A stretch of 64,000 bases of DNA from Gymnothorax reevesii (taxonomy: Eukaryota > Chordata > Actinopteri > Anguilliformes > Muraenidae). The stretch lies in assembly GCA_029721435.1 (NCBI GenBank), contig CM056573.1, positions 71,924,001 through 71,988,000 of the forward strand, given 5' to 3'. Shown piece after piece: positions 1 through 64,000 of the stretch; position 1 is the first letter of the stretch; each line of letters begins with the position of its first letter. The position numbers and the translations under genes were made by a program. Below the pieces are notes generated by a model. The model had not been told where the DNA came from and ran no database searches. It saw nothing but the letters and a program-made list of their open reading frames with translations.

Positions 1-24
1 CTTTTTGAATGGTTTGCAGGCGCA

Positions 25-32
25 TATATAAG
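25..32 (+). promoter_or_regulatory. TATA box of the piggyBac-like 5' region
   Basis: TATATAAG, preceded by a GC-containing stretch. It is conserved in every unit 16 bp after the unit anchor (for example 9557, 25484 and 57313). With usual TATA spacing, initiation would fall near position 55 to 60, about 100 nt before the ATG of the transposase-like segment. Promoter activity is inferred from position and motif only. Confidence 0.5.
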
Positions 33-45
33 CCAGTTGCTGTCA

Positions 46-53
46 TGACGTCA
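46..53 (+). promoter_or_regulatory. Consensus CRE (TGACGTCA)
   Basis: A perfect 8 bp CREB/ATF site lies 14 bp after the TATA box, just before the expected start of transcription. It is unchanged in all 21 units. A CRE between TATA and start site is an unusual position. Confidence 0.5.
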
Positions 54-161
54 GAATCAATTTGTTCTCCCATTTTGCAGGTAGAAATTGTGATTGTCAC
101 AGAGCTGTTCTTCTATTCATTTAGTTTATTTCGTAAGCTGGTTAGGATACAAGAAAAAGAA

Positions 162-414
162 ATGGATCAGAGGAAATGGATGAATGTAAGTCAGGCTTTG
201 GCAATGCTTCAGGACATGAGTTCTTGTGAGTCAGATGGAGAAGAAATATCAGGGCTCAGTGATGCTTCTAGGTCTAGTGAATCCGACTCCGATTTTTGAA
301 ACTGAATGCGATCGTGAGCCACACGGTAAAGGTATCACAGCTGCTGGGCAAACTAAGCCTTTGATGCCAGGAAGGTCACCAAAACTGCATATTTCTTCAC
401 GTCATAATGCTTAG
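162..414 (+). pseudogene. piggyBac-like transposase N-terminal fragment, frameshifted (U1)
   Basis: The likely original start is the ATG at 162, which opens MDQRKWMNVSQAL and leads into a Ser/Asp/Glu-rich stretch (ESDGEEISGLSD, then SSESDSDF). Acidic N-termini of this kind are usual in piggyBac-family transposases. Type A units have five T residues at 292-296 where B, C and D units have four. This shifts the frame and stops it at 297-299; the rest continues in the +1 frame to a stop at 412-414. No DDD catalytic domain follows, so this is only about the first 80 residues of a protein normally near 500 to 600 residues. The family call rests on the N-terminal composition and on the terminal sequence upstream, so it is moderate. 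Confidence 0.55.
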
Positions 415-691
415 GTTTCACAGCATAATATCAAGTCCAAATACTTTGAAACATTTAAAATTAGCCACAATATCAAAAAAAATTTGAAGTTTTAAAGCTC
501 TGACCTCTGTACTATTTAATCAATGAAGAATCTTAGCAAAACACCATTTATTGTCCTCCGAATTCTGAAAGTACTTTGAAATGCTTTCACTGAGGCAAGA
601 CCTCACAGCTTTAAAGTATTACAAAGAGTGGTGCATTTTTGTCAATAAAGAGGATTCAGTCATATTTCCACGTCATCCATGCCATGATGAG
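415..691. other. Unassigned AT-rich interval between piggyBac-like and SINE modules
   Basis: No recognised gene or element. In U17 a stop-to-Ser change lets the upstream frame run a further 29 codons into the equivalent stretch, so its first part may still be piggyBac-derived. An AATAAA sits at 644-649 in A units; B and C units have GATAAA at this place. Confidence 0.5.
644..649 (+). terminator. Candidate poly(A) signal AATAAA (A and D units only)
   Basis: AATAAA lies about 590 bp downstream of the expected start site of the TATA promoter. B and C units read GATAAA here. Functional status is unknown. Confidence 0.25.
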
Positions 692-1025
692 GGGAGACGC
701 AGTAGCGCAGTGGAGAGCATGGGCTTGACTTGGGATGGAAAAATTCTGTGTTCAAGTCCTTGCCTTAGCCTGTGCAAAGTGTTCTCAGGTAAAACTCTTC
801 ACTTCCACACTGCCTCACTCTACCCAGGTGTACAAATGGGTACCAGCAAAATTGTCAGGGAAACTTGACTGAGAGCAGTGGGAGAACCCGAGTTGGACTA
901 GTGTCCCATCGAGGGGGTTTAGCAATACTCCTATTTGCTTCATGTCACAGAAACCAGGGTTAAACACAGGCCTGGTGGGCCTCCAGGCATGACCTCCACG
1001 CCTGGTTAGAAATAGTCTTTATTCC
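692..1025 (+). mobile_element. tRNA-derived SINE (U1)
   Basis: The head holds a good pol III A box (TAGCGCAGTGG, 703-713) and B box (GTTCAAGTCC, 750-759), the arrangement of a tRNA promoter. It is followed by a long non-tRNA body containing CCCAGGTGTACAAATGGGTA and a CAGAAACC...GGCCTGGTGGGCC tail. The body resembles central domains of SINEs spread across aquatic animals (possibly the MetaSINE group, from memory). I see no clear target-site duplication, and the 3' limit is approximate. The body also reads as a short open frame on the + strand, which I treat as chance. Confidence 0.72.
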
Positions 1026-1039
1026 GTCTGAGCAGCTGC

Positions 1040-1215
1040 TCATTTTGAAAACAAGAAGGGCACTTGGTAGAGCTCATACCTCCGCCATGCCCACATGTAA
1101 GTATTATTGGTTCTGGATCCAGGAGAGTATCATCCAGACCAACAACAGCTGTGATTAGTTCCTCTTTTAGGGCAGATTCTATTCAGTGCTGAAATTTTAT
1201 GAAAATCTGTTCATT
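1040..1215 (+). mobile_element. LINE/SINE-tail-like relic
   Basis: GGCACTTGGTAGAGCTCATA, then CCTCCGCCA, then TGGTTCTGGATCCAGGAGAG, then TTTTATGAAAATCTGTTCAT. This is the order of blocks in a dispersed repeat common in fish genomes. The copy is strongly decayed, and the superfamily is not certain from sequence alone. Confidence 0.4.
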
Positions 1216-1530
1216 ACATAAGGACATTCCGAATATAAGACGATTCTGGATATGAGACTACTCCCCTTTCTCAAGTCATATTTTGGAAAAAATAGGGTTT
1301 TGATGACAAAATCTTGTTTTAGTCACTAAAGAATAATAATCATCGCAAAAATTTCTTTGAAAATACTGATAAAACAAACTGGAAGAAAAACCAATATTAA
1401 AGATTGCAGGCTGTTGTTTTGCGCCATCTATTGCTGTGAACATGTATTGAGTATAGACATAAAACGCACACACAGGAGGACTGTTATTGTTAGAAGTCTA
1501 ATCCACGGAAAATACGACGACCCCATTTCT
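1216..1530. other. AT-rich interval with short internal direct repeat
   Basis: It contains ATATAAGACGATTCTGG followed by ATATGAGACTACTCC, an imperfect direct repeat of the sort found in transposon subterminal regions, and a purine-rich stretch. Short open frames on both strands overlap here in every copy; they show no family resemblance and I do not call them genes. Confidence 0.4.
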
Positions 1531-1979
1531 CCGCTGTGACGTGTCTTTAATGGAACGGCGGAGGCGTCAAAGATAAAACAGGGTCACTTGAGCAAAAGGA
1601 GAGGAAATAGTAAACATGCCCGATGGACGAGAGATGCTAATTTACTGAGATTCCGCTGAGAAGTCACTGTTATGTCAAAGACGCAGAGTGCATCGTATGC
1701 CTGTTCCGTGGATATATAAAAAGCACCGTTGCCATAAACATATCTCCCCAGCGGGCCACGGAACGAAGTAGATTCCCAGTCCGTTGTGGAAACATATACT
1801 GGTGTACGTGCGATTAGGCAGTGATTGTTTTAAAATTTCATTTGATTTCATTTGACACACTCTTTTTACTTGAACAAAAGATTGACCGCGATTCCGTACC
1901 ATGCTTTCTGTTAACGTTCTGACAAAATGTGGCAGCCCTCCATGCTTAGGGTTGGGCGTGTAAAGTCACCGAACAGGCC
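1531..1979 (+). repeat. Internal ~450 bp subrepeat, copy a
   Basis: Begins GCTGTGACGTGTCTTTAATGG and runs through GGTCACTTGAGC, GCCCGATGGA, CCGTTGCCATAAAC and a TTACTTGAACAAAAG end. The same landmarks return in the same order 449 bp later. Copy a has lost the TTTGACGTCAAAG palindrome that copy b keeps. Origin is unknown; no coding capacity or terminal repeat is apparent. Confidence 0.8.
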
Positions 1980-2117
1980 TTGTGGTGACGTGTCTCAAAT
2001 GGAACACTCGAGGCGTCATAAATCAGACCGGGTCACTTGAGCAGAAGAAAACAAAGGAGTAAACAAGCCCGATGGATGAGAGGTTCGAATTCGCTTGGAT
2101 TCTGCTGAGAAGTCGCT

Positions 2118-2131
2118 TTGACGTCAAAGAG
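2118..2131. promoter_or_regulatory. 14 bp palindrome containing a CRE
   Basis: CTTTGACGTCAAAG equals its own reverse complement and has TGACGTCA at its centre. It is kept in A, B, C and C/D units. U13 and U17 have CGTGACGTCAAAG, which keeps the CRE but breaks the outer arms. Confidence 0.5.
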
Positions 2132-2322
2132 CCAGAGTGCATCGAATGTTCATTTTGTTGCTATAACAACAGCACCGTTGCTATAAACAACTCTGCCCAG
2201 GGGGCCGACGGAAGAATGCTGATTCTCAGTCCGTGTCCAATGCTCATGGAAACATGTCCAGGTGTACGTGCGATTTGGCAGTGATTTTATTTTTATGAAT
2301 GTAGATTTTAATTGACTCACTC

Positions 2323-2336
2323 TTTGCTTAAGCAAA
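2323..2336. other. 14 bp palindrome with paired variants between unit types
   Basis: A units read TTTGCTTAAGCAAA; most B and C units read TTTGTTTAAACAAA. Both are perfect palindromes. U14 is intermediate (TTTGTTTAAGCAAA), and units with D-type 3' ends have lost it (TTTTTTTAAACAAA). Confidence 0.6.
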
Positions 2337-2436
2337 AAAATGACCGCAATTCAGTTGCATGCTTTTTGTTTACGTATTGACAAAATGTGCCTGCCCTCCA
2401 CTTAGCCGTCGGGCTTGTCTTGTGACCAACCAGGCT

Positions 2437-2488
2437 CTGCTGTTACGTGACTTAAATGGACCAGTGGAGGTTTCAAATTCTCCGGCAG
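2437..2488 (+). repeat. Truncated third subrepeat, cut by the Tc1-like element
   Basis: CTGTTACGTGACTTAAATGG followed by a GGAGGTTTCAAATTC segment repeats the start of copies a and b, then breaks at the Tc1-like terminus. The Tc1-like element therefore probably inserted into a pre-existing subrepeat array. Confidence 0.65.
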
Positions 2489-2930
2489 CTACAGGTCTCA
2501 AAAAAGTTGGCGCACTTGTAAAAAGGGGCTTTAAAAGCATTGAATTTCTAAGAGAATCAGCTGAAAGAACATTTAGCAAGTAATTAAGTTAACTGTCATC
2601 TGCTGCGCAACATGATGACTTATAAAAGGGTTGTCATTGAGAGGCTGAGTTTCTCAGAATTAAAGATGGCCAGAAGCTCTACCACCTGTGAAGGCTTGCA
2701 TAAAAAAAAATGTTGAATACTTTAAAAACACTGCTCCTCGACGTTAAATTGCAAAGACATTGAAGGTCTCATCATCTTCAGTACATGACATCATCAAAAG
2801 ATTCAGAGTAACTGGAAAAATCTCTGCCTGTAAGGGACTAGGCCGAGACCTTTACTGGATGCCCTTTATCTTCGGACCCTCAGATGCCACTGCATCACTC
2901 ACCGGCATGATTCTTGGGATTCTGCAATGA
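2489..2930 (+). mobile_element. Tc1/mariner-like transposon 5' fragment (U1)
   Basis: Starts with CTACAGGTCTCAAAAAAGTT, which matches the terminal motif I recall for a large Tc1-like family of fish, then a TATAAAAGGGTTG leader and an ATG at 2666 opening MARSS. A dead coding relic reads KVSSSSVHDIIKRF (about 2766-2807), the helix-turn-helix part of the Tc1 DNA-binding domain. Stops lie on both sides. The DDE catalytic part and the 3' terminus are missing: homology ends near 2930, where the piggyBac-like end begins. In type A units other than U1 an 11 bp deletion lies just after the helix-turn-helix segment. Confidence 0.75.
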
Positions 2931-2974
2931 TAGAGAAAGAAAAAACATCACTGATTATACCTAGAACTGCCACA

Positions 2975-2989
2975 AGGTCATTCTGACCT
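2975..2989. promoter_or_regulatory. Perfect ERE-type palindrome (AGGTCA N3 TGACCT)
   Basis: AGGTCATTCTGACCT matches the consensus oestrogen response element (inverted AGGTCA half-sites, 3 bp spacer). It recurs 210 or 211 bp before every unit boundary; before several units the spacer is TTT. It may simply be the subterminal repeat of the transposon. Confidence 0.5.
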
Positions 2990-3140
2990 CCATTAGTCCC
3001 AGTGCAAAAGAATGTAAATGGACTATATAGGGGCTGACTATGGAGCTAGGCAGATTGGCAGCTCAAAGCACTTGACAGTAGCCTAATACCTCACGTATGC
3101 CCATTTATGCAACACATTCATACACTGACGGCTACGCAAG

Positions 3141-3167
3141 GCAGTCAACTGCATCTTGGTTGACTGC
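3141..3167. other. Perfect 9 bp stem-loop before the unit boundary
   Basis: GCAGTCAAC and GTTGACTGC flank a 9 nt loop (TGCATCTTG), followed by a T-rich run. It is kept before every unit boundary; only the copy before U13 has a change in the left arm (GTAGTCAAC, leaving a G-T pair). Confidence 0.7.
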
Positions 3168-3355
3168 ATTTTGTTACTTTTTGAATGGTGTGCAGGCGCA
3201 TATATAAGCCAGTTGCTGTCATGACGTCAGAATCAATTTGTTCTCCCATTTTGCAGGTACAAATTGTGATTGTCACAGAGCTGTTCTTCTATTCATTTAT
3301 TTTATTTAGTAAGCTGGTTAGGATACCAGAAAAATAAATTAATCAGAGGAAATGG

Positions 3356-3589
3356 ATGAATGTAAGTCAGGCTTTGACAAAGCTTCAGGACATGAGTTCT
3401 TGTGAGTCAGATGGAGAAGAAATATCAGGGCTCAGTGATGCTTCTAGGTCTAGTGAATCCGACTCCGATTTTGAAACTGAATGCGATCGTGAGCCACACG
3501 GTAAAGGTATCACAGCTGCTGGGCAAACTAAGCCTTTGATGCCAGGAAGGTCACCAAAACTGGATATTTATTCACGTCATAATGCTTAG
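3356..3589 (+). pseudogene. piggyBac-like N-terminal fragment (U2)
   Basis: The acidic segment is in frame (four T residues), but the original ATG is ATT and an upstream GAA has become TAA. Only the internal ATG at 3356 remains, giving 77 codons. Confidence 0.5.
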
Positions 3590-3864
3590 GTTTCACAGCA
3601 TAATTTCAAGTCCAAATACTTTGAAACATTTAAAATTAGCCACAATAGCCAACAAATTGATGCTTTAAAGCTCTGACCTCTATACTATTTAATCAATGAA
3701 GAATCTTAGCAAAACACCATTTATTGTCCTCTGAATTCTGAAAGTACTTTGAAATGCTTTCACTGAGGCAACACCTCACAGCTTAAAAGTATTACAAAGA
3801 GTGGTGCATTTTTGTCGATAAAGAGGATGCAGTCATATTTCCACGTCATCCATGCCATGATGAA

Positions 3865-4198
3865 GGGAGACGCAGTAGCGCAGTGGAGAGCATGGGCTTG
3901 ACTTGGGATGGAAAGATTCTGTGTTCAAGTCCTTGCCTTAGCCTGTGCAAAGTGTTCTCAGGCAAAACTCTTCACTTCCACACTGCCTCACTCTACCCAG
4001 GTGTACAAATGGGTCCCAGCAAAATTGTCAGGGAAACTTGACTGAGAGCAGTGGGAGAACCCGAGTTGGACTAGTGTCCCATCGAGGGGGTTTAGCAATA
4101 CTCCTATTTGCTTCATGTCACAGAAACCAGGGTTAAACACAGGCCTGGTGGGCCTCCAGGCATGACCTCCACGCCTGGTTAGAAATAGTCTTTATTCC
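3865..4198 (+). mobile_element. tRNA-derived SINE (U2)
   Basis: 334 bp copy with both pol III boxes intact; carries gggagacgc and gtccttgcc variants. Confidence 0.7.
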
Positions 4199-5675
4199 GT
4201 CTGAGCAGCTGCTCATTTTGAAAACAAGAAGGGCACTTGGTAGAGCTCATACCTCCGCCAAGCCCACATGTAAGTATTATTGGTTCTGGATCCAGGAGAG
4301 AATCATCCAGACCAACAACAGCTGTGATTATTTCCTCTTTTAGGGCAGATTCTATTCAGTGCTGAAATTTTCTGAAAATCTGTTCATTACATAAGGACAT
4401 ACCGAATTGTTCCAAATATAAGACGATTCTGGATATGAGACTACTCCCCTTTCTCAAGTCATATTTTGGAAAAAATAGGGTATTGATGACAAAATCTTGT
4501 ATTAGTCACTAAAGAATAATAATCATCGCAAAAATTTCTTTGAAAATACTGATAAAACAAACTGAAAGAAAAACCAATATAAAAGATTGCAGGCTGTTGT
4601 TTTGCGCCATCTATTGTTGTGAACATGTATTGAGTATAGATTATAAAACGCACACACAGGATGACTGTTATTGTTAGAAGCCTAGTCCACGGAAAATACG
4701 ACGACCCCATTTCTCCGCTGTGACGTGTCTTTAATGGAACGGCGGAGGCGTCAAAGATAAAACAGGGTCACATGAGCAAAAAGAGAGGAAATAGTAAACA
4801 TGCCCGATGGACGAGAGATGCTAATTTACTGAGATTCCGCAGAGAAGTCACTGTTATGTCAAAGACGCAGAGTGCATCGTATGCCTGTTCCGTGGATATG
4901 TAAAAAGCACCGTTGCCATAAACATATCTCCCCAGCGGGCCACAGTACGAAGTAGATTCCCAGTCCGTCGTGGAAACATATACTGGTGTACGTGCGATTA
5001 GGTAGTGATTGTTTTTAAATTTCATTTGATTTCATTTGACACACTCTTTTTACTTGAACAAAACATTGACCGCGATTCCGTACCATGCTTTCTGTTAACG
5101 TTCTGACAAAATGTGGCAGCCCTCCTTGCTTAGGGTCGGGCGTGTAAAGTCACCGAACAGGCCTTGTGGTGACGTGTCTTAAATGGAACACTCGAGGCGT
5201 CATAAATCAGACCGGGTCACTTGAGCAGAAGAAAACAAAGGAGTAAACAAGCCCGATGGATGAGAGGTTCGAATTCTCTTGGATTCTGCTGAGAAGTCGC
5301 TTTGACGTCAAAGAGCCAGAGTGCATCGAATGTTCATTTTGTTGCTATAACAACAGCACCGTTGCTATAAACAACTCTGCCCAGGGAGCCGACGGAAGAA
5401 TGCTGATTCTCAGTCCGTGTCCAATGCTCATGGAAAGATGTCCAGGAGTACGTGCGATTTGGCAGTGATTTTATTTTTATGAAATTAGATTTTAATTGAC
5501 TCACTCTTTGTTTAAACAAAAAAAAAAAATGCGCGATTCAGTAGCATGCTTTCTGTTTACGTATTGACAAAATGTGCCTGCCCTCCACTTAGCCGTCGGG
5601 CTTGTCTTGTGACCAAACAGGCTCTGCTGTGACGTGACTTAAATGGATCAGCGGAGGTTTCAAATTCTCCGGCAG

Positions 5676-6117
5676 CTACAGGTCTCAAAAAAGTTGGGAC
5701 ACTTGTAAAAAGGGGCTTTAAAAGCATTGAATTTCTAAGAGAATCAGCTGAAAGAACATTTAGCAAGTAATTAAGTTAACTGTCATCTGCTGCGCAACAT
5801 GATTACTTATAAAAGGGTTGTCATTGAGAGGCTGAGTTTCTCAGAAGTAAAGATGGCCAGAAGCTCTCCCACCTGTGAAGGCTTGCATGAAAAAAAATTT
5901 TGAATACTTTAAAAACACTGCTCCTCGACGTTAAATTGCAAAGGCATTGAAGGTCTCATCATCTTCAGTACATGACATCATCAAAAGATTCAGAGTAACT
6001 GGAAAAATCTCTGCGTGTAAGGGACTAGGCCGAAACCTTTACTGGATGCCCTTTATCTTCGGTCCCTCAGATGCCACTGCATCACTCACCGGCATGATTC
6101 TTGGGATTCTGCAATAA
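5676..6117 (+). mobile_element. Tc1-like 5' fragment (U2)
   Basis: Chimeric copy: B-type at the 5' side, then the D-type form (gcatgaaaaaaaatttt, caataacag) from about 5886. Confidence 0.7.
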
Positions 6118-6525
6118 CAGAGACAGAAAAAACATCACTGATTATACCTAGAACTGCCACAAGGTCATTTTGACCTCCATTAGTCCCAGTGCAAAAGAAT
6201 GTAAATGGACTATATAGCGGCTGACTATGGAGCTAGTCAGATTGGCAGCTCAAAGCACTTGACAGTAGCCTAAATCCCTCACGTATGCCCATTTATGCAA
6301 CACATTCATACACTGACGGCTACGCAAGGCAGTCAACTGCATCTTGGTTGACTGCATTTTGTTACTTTTTGAATGGTTTGCAGGCGCATATATAAGCCAG
6401 TTGCTGTCATGACGTCAGAATCAATTTGTTCTCCCATTTTGCAGGTAGAAATTGTGATTGTCACAGAGCTGTTCTTCTATTCATTTAGTTTATTTCGTAA
6501 GCTGGTTAGGATACAAGAAAAAGAA

Positions 6526-6778
6526 ATGGATCAGAGGAAATGGATGAATGTAAGTCAGGCTTTGGCAATGCTTCAGGACATGTGTTCTTGTGAGTCAGAT
6601 GGAGAAGAAATATCAGGGCTCAGTGATGCGTCTAGGTCTAGTGAATCCGACTCCGATTTTTGAAACTGAATGCGATCGTGAGCCACACGGTAAAGGTATC
6701 ACAGCTGCTGGGCAAACTAAGCCTTTGATGCCAGGAAGGTCACCAAAACTGCATATTTCTTCACGTCATAATGCTTAG
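6526..6778 (+). pseudogene. piggyBac-like N-terminal fragment, frameshifted (U3)
   Basis: Keeps the ATG of type A units and has the extra T that ends the first frame at 6661-6663. Confidence 0.5.
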
Positions 6779-7055
6779 GTTTCACAGCATAATATCAAGT
6801 CCAAATACTTTGAAACATTTAAAATTAGCCACAATATCAAAAAAAATTTGAAGTTTTAAAGCTCTGACCTCTGTACTATTTAATCAATGAAGAATCTTAG
6901 CAAAACACCATTTATTGTCCTCCGAATTCTGAAAGTACTTTGAAATGCTTTCACTGAGGCAAGACCTCACAGCTTTAAAGTATTACAAAGAGTGGTGCAT
7001 TTTTGTCAATAAAGAGGATTCAGTCATATTTCCACGTCATCCATGCCATGATGAG

Positions 7056-7389
7056 GGGAGACGCAGTAGCGCAGTGGAGAGCATGGGCTTGACTTGGGAT
7101 GGAAAAATTCTGTGTTCAAGTCCTTGCCTTAGCCTGTGCAAAGTGTTCTCAGGTAAAACTCTTCACTTCCACACTGCCTCACTCTACCCAGGTGTACAAA
7201 TGGGTACCAGCAAAATTGTCAGGGAAACTTGACTGAGAGCAGTGGGAGAACCCGAGTTGGACTAGTGTCCCATCGAGGGGGTTTAGCAATACTCCTATTT
7301 GCTTCATGTCACAGAAACCAGGGTTAAACACAGGCCTGGTGGGCCTCCAGGCATGACCTCCACGCCTGGTTAGAAATAGTCTTTATTCC
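7056..7389 (+). mobile_element. tRNA-derived SINE (U3)
   Basis: Type A copy, with gggtacc in the body where B and C copies have gggtccc; A and B boxes intact. Confidence 0.7.
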
Positions 7390-8854
7390 GTCTGAGCAGC
7401 TGCTCATTTTGAAAACAAGAAGGGCACTTGGTAGAGCTCATACCTCCGCCATGCCCACATGTAAGTATTATTGGTTCTGGATCCAGGAGAGTATCATCCA
7501 GACCAACAACAGCTGTGATTAGTTCCTCTTTTAGGGTAGATTCTATTCAGTGCTGAAATTTTATGAAAATCTGTTCATTACATAAGGACATTCCGAATAT
7601 AAGACGATTCTGGATATGAGACTACTCCCCTTTCTCAAGTCATATTTTGGAAAAAATAGGGTTTTGATGACAAAATCTTGTTTTAGTCACTAAAGAATAA
7701 TAATCATCGCAAAAATTTCTTTGAAAATACTGATAAAACAAACTGGAAGAAAAACCAATATTAAAGATTGCAGGCTGTTGTTTTGCGCCATCTATTGCTG
7801 TGAACATGTATTGAGTATAGACATAAAACGCACACACAGGAGGACTGTTATTGTTAGAAGTCTAATCCACGGAAAATACGACGACCCCATTTCTCCGCTG
7901 TGACGTGTTTTTAATGGAACGGCGGAGGCGTCAAAGATAAAACAGGGTCACTTGAGCAAAAGGAGAGGAAATAGTAAACATGCCCGATGGACGAGAGATG
8001 CTAATTTACTGAGATTCCGCTGAGAAGTCACTGTTATGTCAAAGACGCAGAGTGCATCGTATGCCTGTTCCGTGGATATATAAAAAGCACCGTTGCCATA
8101 AACATATCTCCCCAGCGGGCCACGGAACGAAGTAGATTCCCAGTCCGTTGTGGAAACATATACTGGTGTACGTGCGATTAGGCAGTGATTGTTTTAAAAT
8201 TTCATTTGATTTCATTTGACACACTCTTTTTACTTGAACAAAAGATTGACCGCGATTCCGTACCATGCTTTCTGTTAACGTTCTGACAAAATGTGGCAGC
8301 CCTCCATGCTTAGGGTTGGGCGTGTAAAGTCACCGAACAGGCCTTGTGGTGACGTGTCTCAAATGGAACACTCGAGGCGTCATAAATCAGACCGGGTCAC
8401 TTGAGCAGAAGAAAACAAAGGAGTAAACAAGCCCGATGGATGAGAGGTTCGAATTCGCTTGGATTCTGCTGAGAAGTCGCTTTGACGTCAAAGAGCCAGA
8501 GTGCATCGAATGTTCATTTTGTTGCTATAACAACAGCACCGTTGCTATAAACAACTCTGCCCAGGGGGCCGACGGAAGAATGCTGATTCTCAGTCCGTGT
8601 CCAATGCTCATGGAAACATGTCCAGGTGTACGTGCGATTTGGCAGTGATTTTATTTTTATGAATGTAGATTTTAATTGACTCACTCTTTGCTTAAGCAAA
8701 AAAATGACCGCAATTCAGTTGCATGCTTTTTGTTTACGTATTGACAAAATGTGCCTGCCCTCCACTTAGCCGTCGGGCTTGTCTTGTGACCAAACAGGCT
8801 GTCTGCTGTGACGTGACTTAAATGGATCAGCGGAGGTTTCAAATTCTACGGCAG

Positions 8855-9286
8855 CTACAGGTCTCAAAAAAGTTGGGACACTTGTAAAAAGGGGCTTTAA
8901 AAGCATTGAATTTCTAAGAGAATCAGCTGAAAGAACATTTAGCAAGTAATTAAGTTAACTGTCATCTGCTGCGCAACATGATTACTCATAAAAGGGTTGT
9001 CATTGAGAGGCTGAGTTTCTCAGAAGTAAAGATGGCCAGAAGCTCTCCCACCTGTGAAGGCTTGCATGAAAAATAATGTTGAATACTTTAAAAACACTGC
9101 TCCTCGACGTTAAATTGCAAAAGCATTGAAGGCCTCATCATCTTCAGTACATGACATCATCAAAAGATTCAGAGTAACTGGAAAAATCAGGGACTAGGCC
9201 GAAACCTTTACTGGATGCCCTTTATCTTCGGACCCTCAGATGCCACTGCATCACTCACCGGCATGATTCTTGGGATTCTGCAATGA
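8855..9286 (+). mobile_element. Tc1-like 5' fragment (U3)
   Basis: Type A form with the 11 bp deletion after the helix-turn-helix relic. Confidence 0.7.
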
Positions 9287-9540
9287 TAGAGAAAGAAAAA
9301 ACATCACTGATTATACCTAGAACTGCCACAAGGTCATTCTGACCTCCATTAGTCCCAGTGCAAAAGAATGTAAATGGACTATATAGGGGCTGACTATGGA
9401 GCTAGGCAGATTGGCAGCTCAAAGCACTTGACAGTAGCCTAATACCTCACGTATGCCCATTTATGCAACACATTCATACACTGACGGCTACGCAAGGCAG
9501 TCAACTGCATCTTGGTTGACTGCATTTTGTTACTTTTTGA

Positions 9541-9945
9541 ATGGTGTGCAGGCGCATATATAAGCCAGTTGCTGTCATGACGTCAGAATCAATTTGTTCT
9601 CCCATTTTGCAGGTACAAATTGTGATTGTCACAGAGCTGTTCTTCTATTCATTTAGTTTATTTAGTAAGCTGGTTAGGATACCAGAAAAAGAAATTAATC
9701 AGAGGAAATGGATGAATGTAAGTCAGGCTTTGACAAAGCTTCAGGACATGAGTTCTTGTGAGTCAGATGGAGAAGAAATATCAGGGCTCAGTGATGCTTC
9801 TAGGTCTAGTGAATCCGACTCCGATTTTGAAACTGAATGCGATCGTGAGCCACACGGTAAAGGTATCACAGCTGCTGGGCAAACTAAGCCTTTGATGCCA
9901 GGAAGGTCACCAAAACTGGATATTTATTCACGTCATAATGCTTAG
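9541..9945 (+). pseudogene. piggyBac-like N-terminal fragment, open for 134 codons (U4)
   Basis: The frame is open from the unit anchor across the TATA box to the stop, but the first 57 codons are probably promoter and leader read through by chance. The ancestral ATG is changed to ATT, so the best remaining start is an internal ATG. No catalytic domain follows. Confidence 0.5.
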
Positions 9946-53873: not shown

Positions 53874-54281
53874 CAGAGACAGAAAAAACATCACTGATTA
53901 TACCTAGAACTGCCACAAGGTCATTTTGACCTCCATTAGTCCCAGTGCAAAAGAATGTAAATGGACTATATAGCGGCTGACTATGGAGCTAGTCAGATTG
54001 GCAGCTCAAAGCACTTGACAGTAGCCTAAATCCCTCACGTATGCCCATTTATGCAACACATTCATACACTGACGGCTACGCAAGGCAGTCAACTGCATCT
54101 TGGTTGACTGCATTTTGTTACTTTTTGAATGGTTTGCAGGCGCATATATAAGCCAGTTGCTGTCATGACGTCAGAATCAATTTGTTCTCCCATTTTGCAG
54201 GTAGAAATTGTGATTGTCACAGAGCTGTTCTTCTATTCATTTAGTTTATTTCGTAAGCTGGTTAGGATACAAGAAAAAGAA

Positions 54282-54534
54282 ATGGATCAGAGGAAATGGA
54301 TGAATGTAAGTCAGGCTTTGGCAAAGCTTCAGGACATGAGTTCTTGTGAGTCAGATGGAGAAGAAATATCAGGGCTCAGTGATGCGTCTAGGTCTAGTGA
54401 ATCCGACTCCGATTTTTGAAACTGAATGCGATCGTGAGCCACACGGTAAAGGTATCACAGCTGCTGGGCAAACTAAGCCTTTGATGCCAGGAAGGTCACC
54501 AAAACTGCATATTTCTTCACGTCATAATGCTTAG
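54282..54534 (+). pseudogene. piggyBac-like N-terminal fragment, frameshifted (U18)
   Basis: Type A state, early stop at 54417-54419; LAKLQ where other A units have LAMLQ. Confidence 0.5.
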
Positions 54535-54811
54535 GTTTCACAGCATAATATCAAGTCCAAATACTTTGAAACATTTAAAATTAGCCACAATATCAAAAAA
54601 AATTTGAAGTTTTAAAGCTCTGACCTCTGTACTATTTAATCAATGAAGAATCTTAGCAAAACACCATTTATTGTCCTCCGAATTCTGAAAGTACTTTGAA
54701 ATGCTTTCACTGAGGCAAGACCTCACAGCTTTAAAGTATTACAAAGAGTGGTGCATTTTTGTCAATAAAGAGGATTCAGTCATATTTCCACGTCATCCAT
54801 GCCATGATGAG

Positions 54812-55145
54812 GGGAGACGCAGTAGCGCAGTGGAGAGCATGGGCTTGACTTGGGATGGAAAAATTCTGTGTTCAAGTCCTTGCCTTAGCCTGTGCAAAGT
54901 GTTCTCAGGTAAAACTCTTCACTTCCACACTGCCTCACTCTACCCAGGTGTACAAATGGGTACCAGCAAAATTGTCAGGGAAACTTGACTGAGAGCAGTG
55001 GGAGAACCCGAGTTGGACTAGTGTCCCATCGAGGGGGTTTAGCAATACTCCTATTTGCTTCATGTCACAGAAACCAGGGTTAAACACAGGCCTGGTGGGC
55101 CTCCAGGCATGACCTCCACGCCTGGTTAGAAATAGTCTTTATTCC
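54812..55145 (+). mobile_element. tRNA-derived SINE (U18)
   Basis: Type A copy with intact pol III boxes. Confidence 0.7.
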
Positions 55146-56610
55146 GTCTGAGCAGCTGCTCATTTTGAAAACAAGAAGGGCACTTGGTAGAGCTCATACC
55201 TCCGCCATGCCCACATGTAAGTATTATTGGTTCTGGATCCAGGAGAGTATCATCCAGACCAACAACAGCTGTGATTAGTTCCTCTTTTAGGGCAGATTCT
55301 ATTCAGTGCTGAAATTTTATGAAAATCTGTTCATTACATAAGGACATTCCGAATATAAGACGATTCTGGATATGAGACTACTCCCCTTTCTCAAGTCATA
55401 TTTTGGAAAAAATAGGGTTTTGATGACAAAATCTTGTTTTAGTCACTAAAGAATAATAATCATCGCAAAAATTTCTTTGAAAATACTGATAAAACAAACT
55501 GGAAGAAAAACCAATATTAAAGATTGCAGGCTGTTGTTTTGCGCCATCTATTGCTGTGAACATGTATTGAGTATAGACATAAAACGCACACACAGGAGGA
55601 CTGTTATTGTTAGAAGTCTAATCCACGGAAAATACGACGACCCCATTTCTCCGCTGTGACGTGTCTTTAATGGAACGGCGGAGGCGTCAAAGATAAAACA
55701 GGGTCACTTGAGCAAAAGGAGAGGAAATAGTAAACATGCCCGATGGACGAGAGATGCTAATTTACTGAGATTCCGCTGAGAAGTCACTGTTATGTCAAAG
55801 ACGCAGAGTGCATCGTATGCCTGTTCCGTGGATATATAAAAAGCACCGTTGCCATAAACATATCTCCCCAGCGGGCCACGGAACGAAGTAGATTCCCAGT
55901 CCGTTGTGGAAACATATACTGGTGTACGTGCGATTAGGCAGTGATTGTTTTAAAATTTCATTTGATTTCATTTGACACACTCTTTTTACTTGAACAAAAG
56001 ATTGACCGCGATTCCGTACCATGCTTTCTGTTAACGTTCTGACAAAATGTGGCAGCCCTCCATGCTTAGGGTTGGGCGTGTAAAGTCACCGAACAGGCCT
56101 TGTGGTGACGTGTCTCAAATGGAACACTCGAGGCGTCATAAATCAGACCGGGTCACTTGAGCAGAAGAAAACAAAGGAGTAAACAAGCCCGATGGATGAG
56201 AGGTTCGAATTCGCTTGGATTCTGCTGAGAAGTCGCTTTGACGTCAAAGAGCCAGAGTGCATCGAATGTTCATTTTGTTGCTATAACAACAGCACCGTTG
56301 CTATAAACAACTCTGCCCAGGGGGCCGACGGAAGAATGCTGATTCTCAGTCCGTGTCCAATGCTCATGGAAACATGTCCAGGTGTACGTGCGATTTGGCA
56401 GTGATTTTATTTTTATGAATGTAGATTTTAATTGACTCACTCTTTGCTTAAGCAAAAAAATGACCGCAATTCAGTTGCATGCTTTTTGTTTACGTATTGA
56501 CAAAATGTGCCTGCCCTCCACTTAGCCGTCGGGCTTGTCTTGTGACCAAACAGGCTGTCTGCTGTGACGTGACTTAAATGGATCAGCGGAGGTTTCAAAT
56601 TCTACGGCAG

Positions 56611-57042
56611 CTACAGGTCTCAAAAAAGTTGGGACACTTGTAAAAAGGGGCTTTAAAAGCATTGAATTTCTAAGAGAATCAGCTGAAAGAACATTTAGCA
56701 AGTAATTAAGTTAACTGTCATCTGCTGCGCAACATGATTACTCATAAAAGGGCTGTCATTGAGAGGCTGAGTTTCTCAGAAGTAAAGATGGCCAGAAGCT
56801 CTCCCACCTGTGAAGGCTTGCATGAAAAATAATGTTGAATACTTTAAAAACACTGCTCCTCGACGTTAAATTGCAAAAGCATTGAAGGCCTCATCATCTT
56901 CAGTACATGACATCATCAAAAGATTCAGAGTAACTGGAAAAATCAGGGACTAGGCCGAAACCTTTACTGGATGCCCTTTATCTTCGGACCCTCAGATGCC
57001 ACTGCATCACTCACCGGCATGATTCTTGGGATTCTGCAATGA
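56611..57042 (+). mobile_element. Tc1-like 5' fragment (U18)
   Basis: Type A form with the 11 bp deletion. Confidence 0.7.
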
Positions 57043-57296
57043 TAGAGAAAGAAAAAACATCACTGATTATACCTAGAACTGCCACAAGGTCATTCTGACC
57101 TCCATTAGTCCCAGTGCAAAAGAATGTAAATGGACTATATAGGGGCTGACTATGGAGCTAGGCAGATTGGCAGCTCAAAGCACTTGACAGTAGCCTAATA
57201 CCTCACGTATGCCCATTTATGCAACACATTCATACACTGACGGCTACGCAAGGCAGTCAACTGCATCTTGGTTGACTGCATTTTGTTACTTTTTGA

Positions 57297-57701
57297 ATGG
57301 TGTGCAGGCGCATATATAAGCCAGTTGCTGTCATGACGTCAGAATCAATTTGTTCTCCCATTTTGCAGGTACAAATTGTGATTGTCACAGAGCTGTTCTT
57401 CTATTCATTTAGTTTATTTAGTAAGCTGGTTAGGATACCAGAAAAAGAAATTAATCAGAGGAAATGGATGAATGTAAGTCAGGCTTTGACAAAGCTTCAG
57501 GACATGAGTTCTTGTGAGTCAGATGGAGAAGAAATATCAGGGCTCAGTGATGCTTCTAGGTCTAGTGAATCCGACTCCGATTTTGAAACTGAATGCGATC
57601 GTGAGCCACACGGTAAAGGTATCACAGCTGCTGGGCAAACTAAGCCTTTGATGCCAGGAAGGTCACCAAAACTGGATATTTATTCACGTCATAATGCTTA
57701 G
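57297..57701 (+). pseudogene. piggyBac-like N-terminal fragment, open for 134 codons (U19)
   Basis: Same state as U4. Confidence 0.5.
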
Positions 57702-57976
57702 GTTTCACAGCATAATTTCAAGTCCAAATACTTTGAAACATTTAAAATTAGCCACAATAGCCAACAAATTGATGCTTTAAAGCTCTGACCTCTATACTAT
57801 TTAATCAATGAAGAATCTTAGCAAAACACCATTTATTGTCCTCTGAATTCTGAAAGTACTTTGAAATGCTTTCACTGAGGCAACACCTCACAGCTTAAAA
57901 GTATTACAAAGAGTGGTGCATTTTTGTCGATAAAGAGGATGCAGTCATATTTCCACGTCATCCATGCCATGATGAA

Positions 57977-58310
57977 GGGATACGCAGTAGCGCAGTGGAG
58001 AGCATGGGCTTGACTTGGGATGGAAAGATTCTGTGTTCAAGTCCATGCCTTAGCCTGTGCAAAGTGTTCTCAGGCAAAACTCTTCACTTCCACACTGCCT
58101 CACTCTACCCAGGTGTACAAATGGGTCCCAGCAAAATTGTCAGGGAAACTTGACTGAGAGCAGTGTGAGAACCCGAGTTGGACTAGTGTCCCATCGAGGG
58201 GGTTTAGCAATACTCCTATTTGCTTCATGTCACAGAAACCAGGGTTAAACACAGGCCTGGTGGGCCTCCAGGCATGACCTCCACGCCTGGTTAGAAATAG
58301 TCTTTATTCC
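57977..58310 (+). mobile_element. tRNA-derived SINE (U19)
   Basis: gggatacgc and gtccatgcc variants, plus a private cagtgtgag. Confidence 0.7.
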
Positions 58311-59789
58311 GTCTGAGCAGCTGCTCATTTTGAAAACAAGAAGGGCACTTGGTAGAGCTCATACCTCCGCCAAGCCCACATGTAAGTATTATTGGTTCTG
58401 GATCCAGGAGAGTATCATCCAGACCAACAACAGCTGTGATTAGTTCTTCTTTTAGGGCAGATTCTATTCAGTGCTGAAATTTTCTGAAAATCTGTTGATT
58501 ACATAAGGACATACCGAATTGTTCCGAATATAAGACGATTCTGGATATGAGACTACTCCCCTTTCTCAAGTCATATTTTGGAAAAAATAGGGTTTGGATG
58601 ACAAAATCTTGTTTTAGTCACTAAAGAATAATAATCATGGCAAAAATTTCTTTGAAAATACTGATAAAACAAACTGAAAGAAAAACCAATATAAAAGATT
58701 GCAGGCTGTTGTTTTGCGCCATCTATTGTTGTGAACATGTATTGAGTATAGACTATAAAACGCACACACAGGATGACTGCTATTGTGAGAAGCCTAGTCC
58801 ACAGAAAATACGACGACCCCATTTCTCCGCTGTGACGTGTCTTTAATGGAACGGCGGAGGCGTCAAAGATAAAACAGGGTCACTTGAGCAAAAGGAGAGG
58901 AAATAGTAAACATGCCCGATGGACGAGAGATGCTAATTTACTGAGATTCCGCAGAGAAGTCACTGTTATGTCAAAGACGCAGAGTGCATCGTATGCCTGT
59001 TCCGTGGATATGTAAAAAGCACCGTTGCCATAAACATATCTCCCCAGCGGGCCACAGTACGAAGTAGATTCCCAGTCCGTCGTGGAAACATATACTGGTG
59101 TACGTGCGATTAGGTAGTGATTGTTTTTAAATTTCATTTGATTTCATTTGACACACTCTTTTTACTTGAACAAAAGATTGACCGCGATTCCGTACCATGC
59201 TTTCTGTTAACGTTCTGACAAAATGTGGCAGCCCTCCATGCTTAGGGTCGGGCGTGTAAAGTCACCGAACAGGCCTTGTGGTGACGTGTCTTAAATGGAA
59301 CACTCGAGGCATCATAAATCAGACCGGGTCACTTGAGCAGAAGAAAACAAAGGAGTAAACAAGCCCGATGGATGAGAGGTTCGAATTCTCTTGGATTCGG
59401 CTGAGAGGTCGCTTTGACGTCAAAGAGCCAGAGGGCATCGAATGTTCATTTTGTTGCTATAACAACAGCACCGTTGCTATAAACAACTCTGCCCAGGGAG
59501 CCGACGGAAGAATGCTGATTCTCAGTCCGTGTCCAATGCTCATGGAAAGATGCCCAGGAGTACATGCGATTTGGCAGTGATTTTATTTTTATGAAATTAG
59601 ATTTTAATTGACTCACTCTTTGTTTAAACAAAAAAAAAAAAGATGCGCGATTCAGTAGCATGCTTTCTGTTTACGTATTGACAAAATGTGCCTGCCCTCC
59701 ACTTAGCCGTCGGGCTTGTCTTGTGACCAACCAGGCTCTGCTGTTACGTGACTTAAATGGACCAGTGGAGGTTTCAAATTCTCCGGCAG

Positions 59790-60231
59790 CTACAGGTCTC
59801 AAAAAAGTTGGCGCACTTGTAAAAAGGGGCTTTAAAAGCATTGAATTTCTAAGAGAATCAGCTGAAAGAACATTTAGCAAGTAATTAAGTTAACTGTCAT
59901 CTGCTGCGCAACATGATGACTTATAAAAGGGTTGTCATTGAGAGGCTGAGTTTCTCAGAATTAAAGATGGCCAGAAGCTCTACCACCTGTGAAGGCTTGC
60001 ATAAAAAAAAATGTTGAATACTTTAAAAACACTGCTCCTCGACGTTAAATTGCAAAGACATTGAAGGTCTCATCATCTTCAGTACATGACATCATCAAAA
60101 GATTCAGAGTAACTGGAAAAATCTCTGCCTGTAAGGGACTAGGCCGAGACCTTTACTGGATGCCCTTTATCTTCGGACCCTCAGATGCCACTGCATCACT
60201 CACCGGCATGATTCTTGGGATTCTGCAATGA
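59790..60231 (+). mobile_element. Tc1-like 5' fragment (U19)
   Basis: Same form as U4. Confidence 0.7.
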
Positions 60232-60656
60232 TAGAGAAAGAAAAAACATCACTGATTATACCTAGAACTGCCACAAGGTCATTCTGACCTCCATTAGTCC
60301 CAGTGCAAAAGAATGTAAATGGACTATATAGGGGCTGACTATGGAGCTAGGCAGATTGGCAGCTCAAAGCACTTGACAGTAGCCTAATACCTCACGTATG
60401 CCCATTTATGCAACACATTCATACACTGACGGCTACGCAAGGCAGTCAACTGCATCTTGGTTGACTGCATTTTGTTACTTTTTGAATGGTGTGCAGGCGC
60501 ATATATAAGCCAGTTGCTGTCATGACGTCAGAATCAATTTGTTCTCCCATTTTGCAGGTACAAATTGTGATTGTCACAGAGCTGTTCTTCTATTCATTTA
60601 TTTTATTTAGTAAGCTGGTTAGGATACCAGAAAAATAAATTAATCAGAGGAAATGG

Positions 60657-60890
60657 ATGAATGTAAGTCAGGCTTTGACAAAGCTTCAGGACATGAGTTC
60701 TTGTGAGTCAGATGGAGAAGAAATATCAGGGCTCAGTGATGCTTCTAGGTCTAGTGAATCCGACTCCGATTTTGAAACTGAATGCGATCGTGAGCCACAC
60801 GGTAAAGGTATCACAGCTGCTGGGCAAACTAAGCCTTTGATGCCAGGAAGGTCACCAAAACTGGATATTTATTCACGTCATAATGCTTAG
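60657..60890 (+). pseudogene. piggyBac-like N-terminal fragment (U20)
   Basis: Type B state, 77 codons from an internal ATG. Confidence 0.5.
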
Positions 60891-61165
60891 GTTTCACAGC
60901 ATAATTTCAAGTCCAAATACTTTGAAACATTTAAAATTAGCCACAATAGCCAACAAATTGATGCTTTAAAGCTCTGACCTCTATACTATTTAATCAATGA
61001 AGAATCTTAGCAAAACACCATTTATTGTCCTCTGAATTCTGAAAGTACTTTGAAATGCTTTCACTGAGGCAACACCTCACAGCTTAAAAGTATTACAAAG
61101 AGTGGTGCATTTTTGTCGATAAAGAGGATGCAGTCATATTTCCACGTCATCCATGCCATGATGAA

Positions 61166-61499
61166 GGGAGACGCAGTAGCACAGTGGAGAGCATGGGCTT
61201 GACTTGGGATGGAAAGATTCTGTGTTCCAGTCCTTGCCTTAGCCTGTGCAAAGTGTTCTCAGGCAAAACTCTTCACTTCCACACTGCCTCACTCTACCCA
61301 GGTGTACAAATGGGTCCCAGCAAAATTGTCAGGGAAACTTGACTGAGAGCAGTGGGAGAACCCGAGTTGGACTAGTGTCCCATCGAGGGGGTTTAGCAAT
61401 ACTCCTATTTGCTTCATGTCACAGAAACCAGGGTTAAACACAGGCCTGGTGGGCCTCCAGGCATGACCTCCACGCCTGGTTAGAAATAGTCTTTATTCC
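61166..61499 (+). mobile_element. tRNA-derived SINE with both pol III boxes altered (U20)
   Basis: The A box reads TAGCACAGTGG and the B box GTTCCAGTCC. This is the only copy in the array in which I see both boxes changed. Confidence 0.75.
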
Positions 61500-62975
61500 G
61501 TCTGAGCAGCTGCTCATTTTGAAAACAAGAAGGGCACTTGGTAGAGCTCATACCTCCGCCAAGCCCACATGTAAGTATTATTGGTTCTGGATCCAGGAGA
61601 GAATCATCCAGACCAACAACAGCTGTGATTATTTCCTCTTTTAGGGCAGATTCTATTCAGTGCTGAAATTTTCTGAAAATCTGTTCATTACATAAGGACA
61701 TACCGAATTGTTCCAAATATAAGACGATTCTGGATATGAGACTACTCCCCTTTCTCAAGTCATATTTTGGAAAAAATAGGGTATTGATGACAAAATCTTG
61801 TATTAGTCACTAAAGAATAATAATCATCGCAAAAATTTCTTTGAAAATACTGATAAAACAAACTGAAAGAAAAACCAATATAAAAGATTGCAGGCTGTTG
61901 TTTTGCGCCATCTATTGTTGTGAACATGTATTGAGTATAGATTATAAAACGCACACACAGGATGACTGTTATTGTTAGAAGCCTAGTCCACGGAAAATAC
62001 GACGACCCCATTTCTCCGCTGTGACGTGTCTTTAATGGAACGGCGGAGGCGTCAAAGATAAAACAGGGTCACATGAGCAAAAAGAGAGGAAATAGTAAAC
62101 ATGCCCGATGGACGAGAGATGCTAATTTACTGAGATTCCGCAGAGAAGTCACTGTTATGTCAAAGACGCAGAGTGCATCGTATGCCTGTTCCGTGGATAT
62201 GTAAAAAGCACCGTTGCCATAAACATATCTCCCCAGCGGGCCACAGTACGAAGTAGATTCCCAGTCCGTCGTGGAAACATATACTGGTGTACGTGCGATT
62301 AGGTAGTGATTGTTTTTAAATTTCATTTGATTTCATTTGACACACTCTTTTTACTTGAACAAAACATTGACCGCGATTCCGTACCATGCTTTCTGTTAAC
62401 GTTCTGACAAAATGTGGCAGCCCTCCTTGCTTAGGGTCGGGCGTGTAAAGTCACCGAACAGGCCTTGTGGTGACGTGTCTTAAATGGAACACTCGAGGCG
62501 TCATAAATCAGACCGGGTCACTTGAGCAGAAGAAAACAAAGGAGTAAACAAGCCCGATGGATGAGAGGTTCGAATTCTCTTGGATTCTGCTGAGAAGTCG
62601 CTTTGACGTCAAAGAGCCAGAGTGCATCGAATGTTCATTTTGTTGCTATAACAACAGCACCGTTGCTATAAACAACTCTGCCCAGGGAGCCGACGGAAGA
62701 ATGCTGATTCTCAGTCCGTGTCCAATGCTCATGGAAAGATGTCCAGGAGTACGTGCGATTTGGCAGTGATTTTATTTTTATGAAATTAGATTTTAATTGA
62801 CTCACTCTTTGTTTAAACAAAAAAAAAAATGCGCGATTCAGTAGCATGCTTTCTGTTTACGTATTGACAAAATGTGCCTGCCCTCCACTTAGCCGTCGGG
62901 CTTGTCTTGTGACCAAACAGGCTCTGCTGTGACGTGACTTAAATGGATCAGCGGAGGTTTCAAATTCTCCGGCAG

Positions 62976-63417
62976 CTACAGGTCTCAAAAAAGTTGGGAC
63001 ACTTGTAAAAAGGGGCATTAAAAGCATTGAATTTCTAAGAGAATCAGCTGAAAGAACATTTAGCAAGTAATTAAGTTAACTGTCATCTGCTGCGCAACAT
63101 GATTACTTATAAAAGGGTTGTCATTGAGAGGCTGAGTTTCTCAGAAGTAAAGATGGCCAGAAGCTCTCCCACCTGTGAAGGCTTGCATAAAAAAAAATGT
63201 TGAATACTTTAAAAACACTGCTCCTCGACGTTAAATTGCAAAGACATTGAAGGTCTCATCATCTTCAGTACATGACATCATCAAAAGATTCAGAGTAACT
63301 GGAAAAATCTCTGCCTGTAAGGGACTAGGCCGAGACCTTTACTGGATGCCCTTTATCTTCGGACCCTCAGATGCCACTGCATCACTCACCGGCATGATTC
63401 TTGGGATTCTGCAATGA
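62976..63417 (+). mobile_element. Tc1-like 5' fragment (U20)
   Basis: Full-length form with a private ggggcattaaaag. Confidence 0.7.
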
Positions 63418-63671
63418 TAGAGAAAGAAAAAACATCACTGATTATACCTAGAACTGCCACAAGGTCATTCTGACCTCCATTAGTCCCAGTGCAAAAGAAT
63501 GTAAATGGACTATATAGGGGCTGACTATGGAGCTAGGCAGATTGGCAGCTCAAAGCACTTGACAGTAGCCTAATACCTCACGTATGCCCATTTATGCAAC
63601 ACATTCATACACTGACGGCTACGCAAGGCAGTCAACTGCATCTTGGTTGACTGCATTTTGTTACTTTTTGA

Positions 63672-64000
63672 ATGGTGTGCAGGCGCATATATAAGCCAGT
63701 TGCTGTCATGACGTCAGAATCAATTTGTTCTCCCATTTTGCAGGTACAAATTGTGATTGTCACAGAGCTGTTCTTCTATTCATTTAGTTTATTTAGTAAG
63801 CTGGTTAGGATACCAGAAAAATAAATTAATCAGAGGAAATGGATGAATGTAAGTCAGGCTTTGACAAAGCTTCAGGACATGAGTTCTTGTGAGTCAGATG
63901 GAGAAGAAATATCAGGGCTCAGTGATGCTTCTAGGTCTAGTGAATCCGACTCCGATTTTGAAACTGAATGCGATCGTGAGCCACACGGTAAAGGTATCAC
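63672..64000 (+). repeat. Unit U21, B-like, cut by window end (329 bp)
   Basis: Has the aaaaataaattaatc stop of type B but the atttagtttattt form of other types upstream, so it is a B variant or an exchange product. Confidence 0.85.
63843..64000 (+). pseudogene. piggyBac-like N-terminal fragment, partial (U21)
   Basis: Frame open from the internal ATG to the window end; the ancestral ATG is absent. Confidence 0.45.

What the first reader, a model, noticed from the sequence alone, without database searches (positions are those of the whole stretch)
1..64000. Megasatellite with higher-order structure built from a nested transposon mosaic
Units of about 3.18 kb fall into distinguishable types whose order repeats: an A unit opens each block, and a unit with a D-type end closes it (blocks of 12,740, 9,550, 12,730, 12,736 bp and a chimeric dimer). 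Higher-order repeats are well known for short centromeric satellites; a clear one with a 3.2 kb monomer made of piggyBac-like, SINE, LINE-like and Tc1-like pieces is unusual. The layout is read directly from the sequence; novelty is inference.
Basis: partly seen in the sequence, partly recalled or inferred. Interest (0 to 1): 0.75.

Follow-up and report, generated by a model that had tools for sequence, protein, structure and literature searches.

The report
Kilobase satellite with higher-order repeats
The window lies inside a long run of a 3.2-thousand-letter repeat, partly built from a dead jumping gene, whose four versions recur in a nearly fixed order as human centromere repeats do; the arrangement is real and the repeat is very abundant in this genome, but human DNA holds a close precedent.

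Summary
The layout is real. The window is tandem array throughout: 20 full units of 3168-3195 bp plus partial ends. Label order beats all 200,000 shuffles.

The window lies in an array of about 1.26-1.29 Mb (by sampling) on a 193.4 Mb contig of a 2.17 Gb genome, a ray-finned fish by its globins. One exact 30-mer of the unit occurs 6,997 times, roughly 22 Mb or 1% of the genome. The ABCD order is local; other sampled parts hold other types or are monomeric.

Of the transposon labels only Tc1 was confirmed. piggyBac found no support, SINE rests on two motifs, LINE was not tested.

Best explanation: unequal crossing over and conversion among diverged units, then recent amplification of a four-unit block, probably in or beside a centromere (inferred). 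Human "LTR arrays" (PMC2588610) are a direct precedent: 3.5 kb transposon-fragment monomers in six-unit higher-order repeats with deleted monomers. New member of a known kind.

The parts
1..14 (+). tail of the unit before u01
   Evidence: anchor at 15; sequence read
15..3190 (+). u01, A/B chimera, 3176 bp; A up to window 2366 (one B-type column at 266), B from 2430
3191..6378 (+). u02, like u20 up to about 5804 (with three D-type columns on the way), D-type end from 5889; closes the chimeric dimer block 15-6378 (6,364 bp)
6379..19118 (+). block 2: A (u03) B (u04) C (u05) D (u06), 12,740 bp
19119..28668 (+). block 3: A (u07) C (u08) D (u09), 9,550 bp; B missing
   Evidence: u08 is C at 26 of 26 B/C-diagnostic columns
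28669..41398 (+). block 4: A (u10) B (u11) C* (u12) D* (u13), 12,730 bp
41399..54134 (+). block 5: A (u14) B/C patchwork (u15) C-like (u16) D** (u17), 12,736 bp
54135..64000 (+). block 6, unfinished: A (u18) B (u19) C-like (u20) and 323 bases of a non-A unit
   Evidence: the partial unit differs at 1 of 323 bases from 11 units, 2 from u15, 4 from u17, 8 from u13, and 8-10 from the six units with an A start
12154..12456 (+). Tc1 transposase N-terminal fragment (example in u04; consensus 2608-2910 mapped by offset, approximate), frameshifted
9541..9945 (+).
11076..11297 (+). internal direct repeat, copy 1 (example in u04, gap-free core)
   Evidence: consensus 1530-2000 against 1979-2459, 74.8% identity
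11525..11746 (+). internal direct repeat, copy 2 (example in u04), 449 bases on
10232..10288 (+). SINE-like head with A-box-like TAGCGCAGTGG (10232) and B-box-like GTTCAAGTCC (10279), example in u04; unconfirmed
   Evidence: ARAGORN and Rfam negative on window 1-7000; box names recalled

Best explanation
This is one higher-order-repeat domain of an abundant, non-coding kilobase satellite. A stretch of genomic DNA holding a dead Tc1 fragment and an internal 450-bp duplication was amplified in tandem. Units diverged by about 1-3%, a block of four (A, B, C, D) became the unit of amplification, and out-of-register exchange then dropped single units (the ACD block and the A/B plus C/D dimer) while short conversion tracts mixed B, C and D. 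The array probably forms centromeric or pericentromeric heterochromatin and is not selected for its letters. Shown: unit types, order, chimeric breakpoints, near-identical block copies, approximate array length, genome-wide abundance, other domains with a different order. Inferred: unequal crossing over and conversion as the process, recency, and the centromeric place.
For: Block-wise near identity: A, C and D of blocks 2 and 3 are 99.75, 99.91 and 99.97% alike, against 96.7-98.5% between A, C and D and 98.7-99.3% between B and C. Two switches in the dimer: u01 is A at 84 consecutive diagnostic columns up to 2366, then B at the last 30 (one B column earlier, at 266); u02 is u20-like at most informative columns, then D at the last 14 (three D columns earlier). 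The ACD block lacks one monomer. 1,786 of 10,731 pairs of 147 two-state columns hold all four combinations (4 of 146 adjacent pairs), as recombination or conversion would give. A second A-B-C*-D stretch lies at C1:71.728-71.737 Mb: two units compared whole, 99.97% to u04 and 99.94% to u12, with A-type words before and D-type words after. Two other sampled domains obey other orders. 3,743 + 3,254 exact copies of one 30-mer in the genome, 0 of the reversed control. The only listed frames of 120 aa or more in the window are the 134-aa one, whole in 9 of 21 unit starts. The same process is proposed for human 3.5 kb arrays (PMC2588610 sections 7-9).
Against: No centromere mark, FISH, raw reads or second individual were available. 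The CENP-B-box-like string has a mismatch in its core and sits at one place per unit; its 17 matches exceed 100 of 100 shuffles (mean 4.4, largest 12) but are one event copied with the unit. Whether the about 7,000 copies lie in centromeres is unknown; only C1, C36 and C355 were seen. The assembly could have collapsed or misjoined some blocks. Four-gamete conflicts can also come from repeated mutation. D units of different blocks (98.25% at the lowest) can be less alike than some B-D or C-D pairs (up to 98.46%).
Confidence: 0.78

Rival explanations
1. The array is the functional centromere of C1 and the ABCD block is the kinetochore-forming higher-order repeat, with other layers around it as in human alpha satellite.
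For: An array of about 1.26-1.29 Mb at 37% of a 193.4 Mb contig; about 1% of the genome; block-ordered and monomeric domains in one array.
Against: The ABCD domain is broken: 71.728-71.737 Mb and at least 71.905-72.001 Mb, with other types at 71.80, 71.84 and 71.88 Mb. The monomeric part at 71.03 Mb is more homogeneous (pairs 99.1-100% in the piece compared) than the ABCD part, unlike old flanks. No CENP-A data; no exact CENP-B box in the window. The rest of C1 was sampled at few places, so other arrays on it are not excluded.
Confidence: 0.35
2. The block pattern is partly an assembly artefact: real units, wrongly joined or collapsed.
For: Arrays of near-identical units are hard to assemble; C36 and C355 are separate contigs that carry the same satellite.
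Against: Each block has private variant columns (1, 3, 2, 37, 25 and 5 for blocks 1-6), and the same type order recurs about 200 kb away with small differences.
Confidence: 0.07
3. The unit is a selected element: a transcribed repeat (piRNA or non-coding RNA source) with its own promoter and a short peptide.
For: A TATA-like and a CRE-like string (TGACGTCA at consensus 32; names recalled) near the start of a 134-aa frame; a 97% variant of the frame exists outside the window.
Against: The frame is shortened to 96 or 50 aa in 12 of 21 unit starts; no Pfam family over its cut-off; the only protein found at E <= 0.01 is a variant of the same frame.
Confidence: 0.08

Closest known systems
Human 'LTR arrays' (PMC2588610, 2008; sections 7-9 read whole, other passages seen)
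   Same: Monomer of similar size (about 3.5 kb) made of transposon fragments; tandem arrays of 4 to 25 units in its table; higher-order repeat of six monomers; single- and three-monomer deletions ascribed to unequal crossing over; the three largest arrays pericentromeric.
   Different: Made wholly of MaLR LTR pieces, with an LTR6A insertion as marker; six-unit block; about 460 kb in all, against roughly 22 Mb here; units here differ by point changes and indels of at most 10 alignment columns.
Other human megasatellites and macrosatellites, such as the 5.4 kb and 6 kb transposon-bearing families, DXZ4, D4Z4 (PMC2588610 sections 7-9; PMC8122249 passages)
   Same: Kilobase units in tandem, several carrying transposon pieces, copy-number variable, spread presumably by unequal exchange.
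   Different: No higher-order order is reported for these in the parts I read; D4Z4 carries a gene (DUX4), while no gene was found here.
Alpha satellite higher-order repeats (PMC8122249 and PMC2588610 passages)
   Same: Ordered monomer types amplified as a block.
   Different: 171-bp monomer; monomers of a block differ by 20-40% there (recalled), 1-3% here.
Solanum 2D8 repeat (one passage of PMC8122249)
   Same: 5.9 kb tandem unit arranged as a dimer of about 3 kb monomers, pericentric.
   Different: Related to an rDNA spacer, plant, dimer only.

Membership tests
Megasatellite / macrosatellite | head-to-tail kilobase units in long arrays | tested here: met
   20 full units in the window; array about 1.26-1.29 Mb by sampling; 6,997 exact anchors genome-wide
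Higher-order repeat | type order recurs and same-type units in different blocks are more alike than neighbours | tested here: met
   lag-4 identity 98.72% against 97.67% at lag 1; D units overlap with other types
Higher-order repeat | the same order extends over the whole array (not strictly required) | tested here: not met
   71.03 Mb is monomeric, 70.93 Mb shows another weak period, 71.80-71.88 Mb other types
Human LTR-array family itself | MaLR LTR sequence | not tested
   no MaLR sequence was compared; filed as same kind, not same family
Tc1 transposon | Tc1 N-terminal DNA-binding part | tested here: met
   137 of 158 candidates E <= 0.1, best 1.6e-28; 20 of 20 units; HTH_SB alone stays below its Pfam cut-off (E 0.002)
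Tc1 transposon | intact element with DDE catalytic domain | tested here: not met
   frame broken; on the consensus no match of the 120 listed proteins goes beyond residue 180 or consensus 3129
piggyBac transposon | transposase domain or related N-terminus | tested here: not met
   no transposase in Pfam; none of 40 candidates at E <= 0.1
piggyBac transposon | paired terminal inverted repeats at TTAA | not tested
   no dedicated test; the general repeat search of u04 lists three short inverted pairs, not examined for this
tRNA-derived SINE | pol III A and B boxes with tRNA-like head | tested here: inconclusive
   box-like strings in 19 of 20 units; ARAGORN 0 and Rfam 0 on window 1-7000
LINE-like part | reverse transcriptase or known 3' tail | not tested
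Centromeric satellite | CENP-A chromatin | not testable with these tools
   no ChIP data
Centromeric satellite | CENP-B box (not required in all species; motif recalled) | tested here: not met
   no exact core in the window; 17 one-mismatch sites, one string at the same place in 17 of 20 units

The most novel reading that the evidence does not exclude
A fish genome in which a 3.2 kb, transposon-bearing unit is the common centromere satellite and carries chromosome- or domain-specific higher-order repeats, so that alpha-satellite-like dynamics run on monomers nearly 20 times longer and lie visibly side by side (monomeric, trimer-like and tetramer domains) in one array.
Probability: 0.35. Interest if true: 0.6.

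Novelty: new member of a known kind. Interest (0 to 1): 0.4.

Why it matters
Within about 1.3 Mb the array holds a monomeric, a weakly trimer-like and a tetramer-ordered domain of one long monomer. The four type consensuses differ at 167 columns, so crossover points and conversion tracts can be placed within tens to hundreds of bases. If it is the centromere, it would make the rules by which higher-order repeats arise testable outside primates. The design itself is already in print for human DNA.

Tried and rejected
Tandem Repeats Finder found nothing because its period limit is 500. ARAGORN and Rfam found no RNA in window 1-7000. One exact 30-mer was absent from viral contigs and prokaryote contigs and u04 matched no phage or plasmid record, as expected for a eukaryote. 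A protein search for the Tc1 piece against solved structures gave one chance-level hit (E 0.73). The promoter and terminator scan uses bacterial consensus (13 promoter-like sites against a mean of 6.2 in shuffles) and is not used as evidence. CENP-B box: rejected. Six short strings of the unit in the full text of papers: 0 papers. Dispersed copies: in 96,632 bases of sampled non-array DNA only the Tc1 part of the consensus matched at E <= 1e-3, twice, at about 73%. A draft argument that left-edge units are older was dropped: their 96.6-98.2% is to a consensus made from the window.

Not done because the genome search stopped answering: the genome-wide map of A-type units, a search for piggyBac transposases in the same genome, and the list of contigs that carry the satellite.
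Full report
Observation. The window is array from end to end. An exact 30-mer marks 21 unit starts and gives 20 full units of 3168-3195 bp. The identity matrix clusters by place in the block: A (u03, u07, u10, u14, u18, and most of u01), B (u04, u11, u19, much of u15), C (u05, u08, and C-like u12, u16, u20), D (u06, u09, u13, u17, and the end of u02). Of 167 columns that differ among the four type consensuses, 82 set A apart from B, C and D, and 37 set D apart. The order test gives 17 of 19 expected neighbour pairs, with 0 of 200,000 shuffles reaching it; the label-free lag test is reached by 19 of 20,000 permutations. Within-type identity is 99.37-99.94% for A but only 98.25-99.97% for D, which overlaps with B-D and C-D pairs (up to 98.46%).

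How the blocks differ. The dimer is two fused pairs: u01 switches from A to B between window 2366 and 2430, apart from one B-type column at 266; u02 switches from a u20-like unit to D between 5804 and 5889, apart from three D-type columns before. The 9,550-bp block has lost B; its second unit is C at all 26 columns that tell B from C, and no such column lies in the first 1,197, so the exchange point there cannot be placed. u13, u15 and u17 alternate between types over short stretches, which looks like conversion tracts. Between-type diversity, in 200-column bins, is highest at columns 2200-2400 (5.6%; a three-column end bin is left out) and lowest at 800-1000 and 3000-3200 (0.5% and 0.9%). CpG observed/expected is 0.59, and 24 of 212 variable columns are CpG-context transitions.

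What a unit is made of. (i) A Tc1 transposase N-terminal remnant, frameshifted: best homologue 1.6e-28, 75% identity. All 120 listed homologues match each of the 20 full units at E <= 1e-5; on the consensus the matches lie between 2466 and 3129 and do not go beyond residue 180 of any homologue. (ii) An internal direct repeat, consensus 1530-2000 against 1979-2459 at 74.8%, with a third start at 2431-2473. (iii) A 134-aa frame across the chosen unit junction, whole in 9 of 21 starts. One outside variant, P0001, is 97% identical, comes from 4 contigs of at most 3,484 bases, and is not found letter for letter in the window. (iv) A- and B-box-like strings in 19 of 20 units without a tRNA or Rfam match in window 1-7000. 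The LINE-like label could not be tested.

Surroundings. The window is G000:C1:71,924,001-71,988,000 of a 2,173,976,663-base assembly in 421 contigs. C1 is 193,389,743 bases. Array was present at 70.848 Mb and up to 72.106 Mb; the nearest sampled stretches without it were at 70.835 and 72.130 Mb, and none of 20 one-kilobase outside stretches matched (8 left, 12 right). The length of 1.26-1.29 Mb assumes continuity between samples. Of ten 6-kb samples right of 72.106 Mb, one (72.600 Mb) held 1.4 kb of satellite and nine none. At 71.600 Mb the array is interrupted after 37 bases by at least 3.96 kb of other DNA. The anchor 30-mer has 3,743 forward and 3,254 reverse exact matches in the genome, none for the reversed control; at one 3.186-kb unit each this is 22.3 Mb, 1.0%. 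In the first 100 places (of 6,997), 12 of 99 intervals are about double, so the count misses units. C36 and C355 also carry the satellite; their six compared units form one supported group in a tree of 30 units (96/93), yet an A-type stretch on C355 is 99.88% identical to u18 over 2,573 bases, beside a unit of another type.

Domains. A 741-base piece of ten consecutive units was compared at each of two places (20 of 20 fetched). At 70.93 Mb identity is 99.02% at lag 1 and 99.32% at lag 3, a weak period. At 71.03 Mb it falls steadily from 99.86% at lag 1 to 99.42% at lag 7, which is monomeric spread. The same piece in the window gives 96.41% at lag 1 and 97.91% at lag 4. Window-type units recur at 71.728-71.737 Mb (99.97% and 99.94% to u04 and u12), at 71.905 Mb (99.90% to u17) and at 72.000 Mb (99.79% to u17), but the best matches at 71.80, 71.84 and 71.88 Mb are 99.0-99.1%, with few type-specific words there.

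Host. Seven globin exons were found and two were compared with solved structures. The beta exon is closest to 3bcq, 1xq5 and 1out. For the alpha exon, fused alpha-alpha haemoglobins rank first by summing two stretches, then 9tpz, 1out, 2r1h, 3bcq and 1xq5. That 1out, 1xq5, 3bcq and 2r1h are fish proteins is recalled. A ray-finned fish is the likely host; the species is unknown.

Known ground. PMC2588610 (sections 7, 8 and 9 read whole, other passages seen) describes human megasatellites of transposon-bearing units and, in section 8, LTR arrays of about 3.5 kb monomers in six-unit higher-order repeats, with one or three monomers missing in single copies, ascribed to unequal crossing over. PMC8122249 (passages) mentions a dimer of about 3 kb monomers in Solanum. 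The present array is therefore a new member of a known kind. Its abundance and mixed domains are worth study; its design is not new.

Noticed in passing
G000:C1:71,600,038 onward (L080): The array is interrupted by at least 3.96 kb of other DNA (the whole 4-kb stretch is 37% G+C) with no frame of 120 aa; its nature was not found.
   Followed up: partly
L009 1137-2690 and 3767-3991 (C1:70.849-70.852 Mb): Two gaps of non-satellite DNA near the left edge of the array.
   Followed up: no
C1:71.158-71.199 Mb (anchor spacings): A 3176-3177 bp unit recurs after 3, 4 and 5 unit lengths, hinting at another higher-order pattern.
   Followed up: no
consensus 1530-2473; window 11076-11746 in u04: A direct repeat of about 450 bp period inside each unit at 75% identity, with a third partial copy: an older tandem event within the monomer.
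   Followed up: partly
C355 1-6000 (L025): An A-type stretch almost identical to the window's A units sits beside a non-B unit on another contig, so either A has spread between arrays or C355 belongs to C1.
   Followed up: partly
L014 1-1415 (C1:72.600 Mb): A 1.4 kb satellite fragment at 98.5% to the consensus (1,360 bases, plus a 56-base piece at 93%), about half a megabase right of the array.
   Followed up: no
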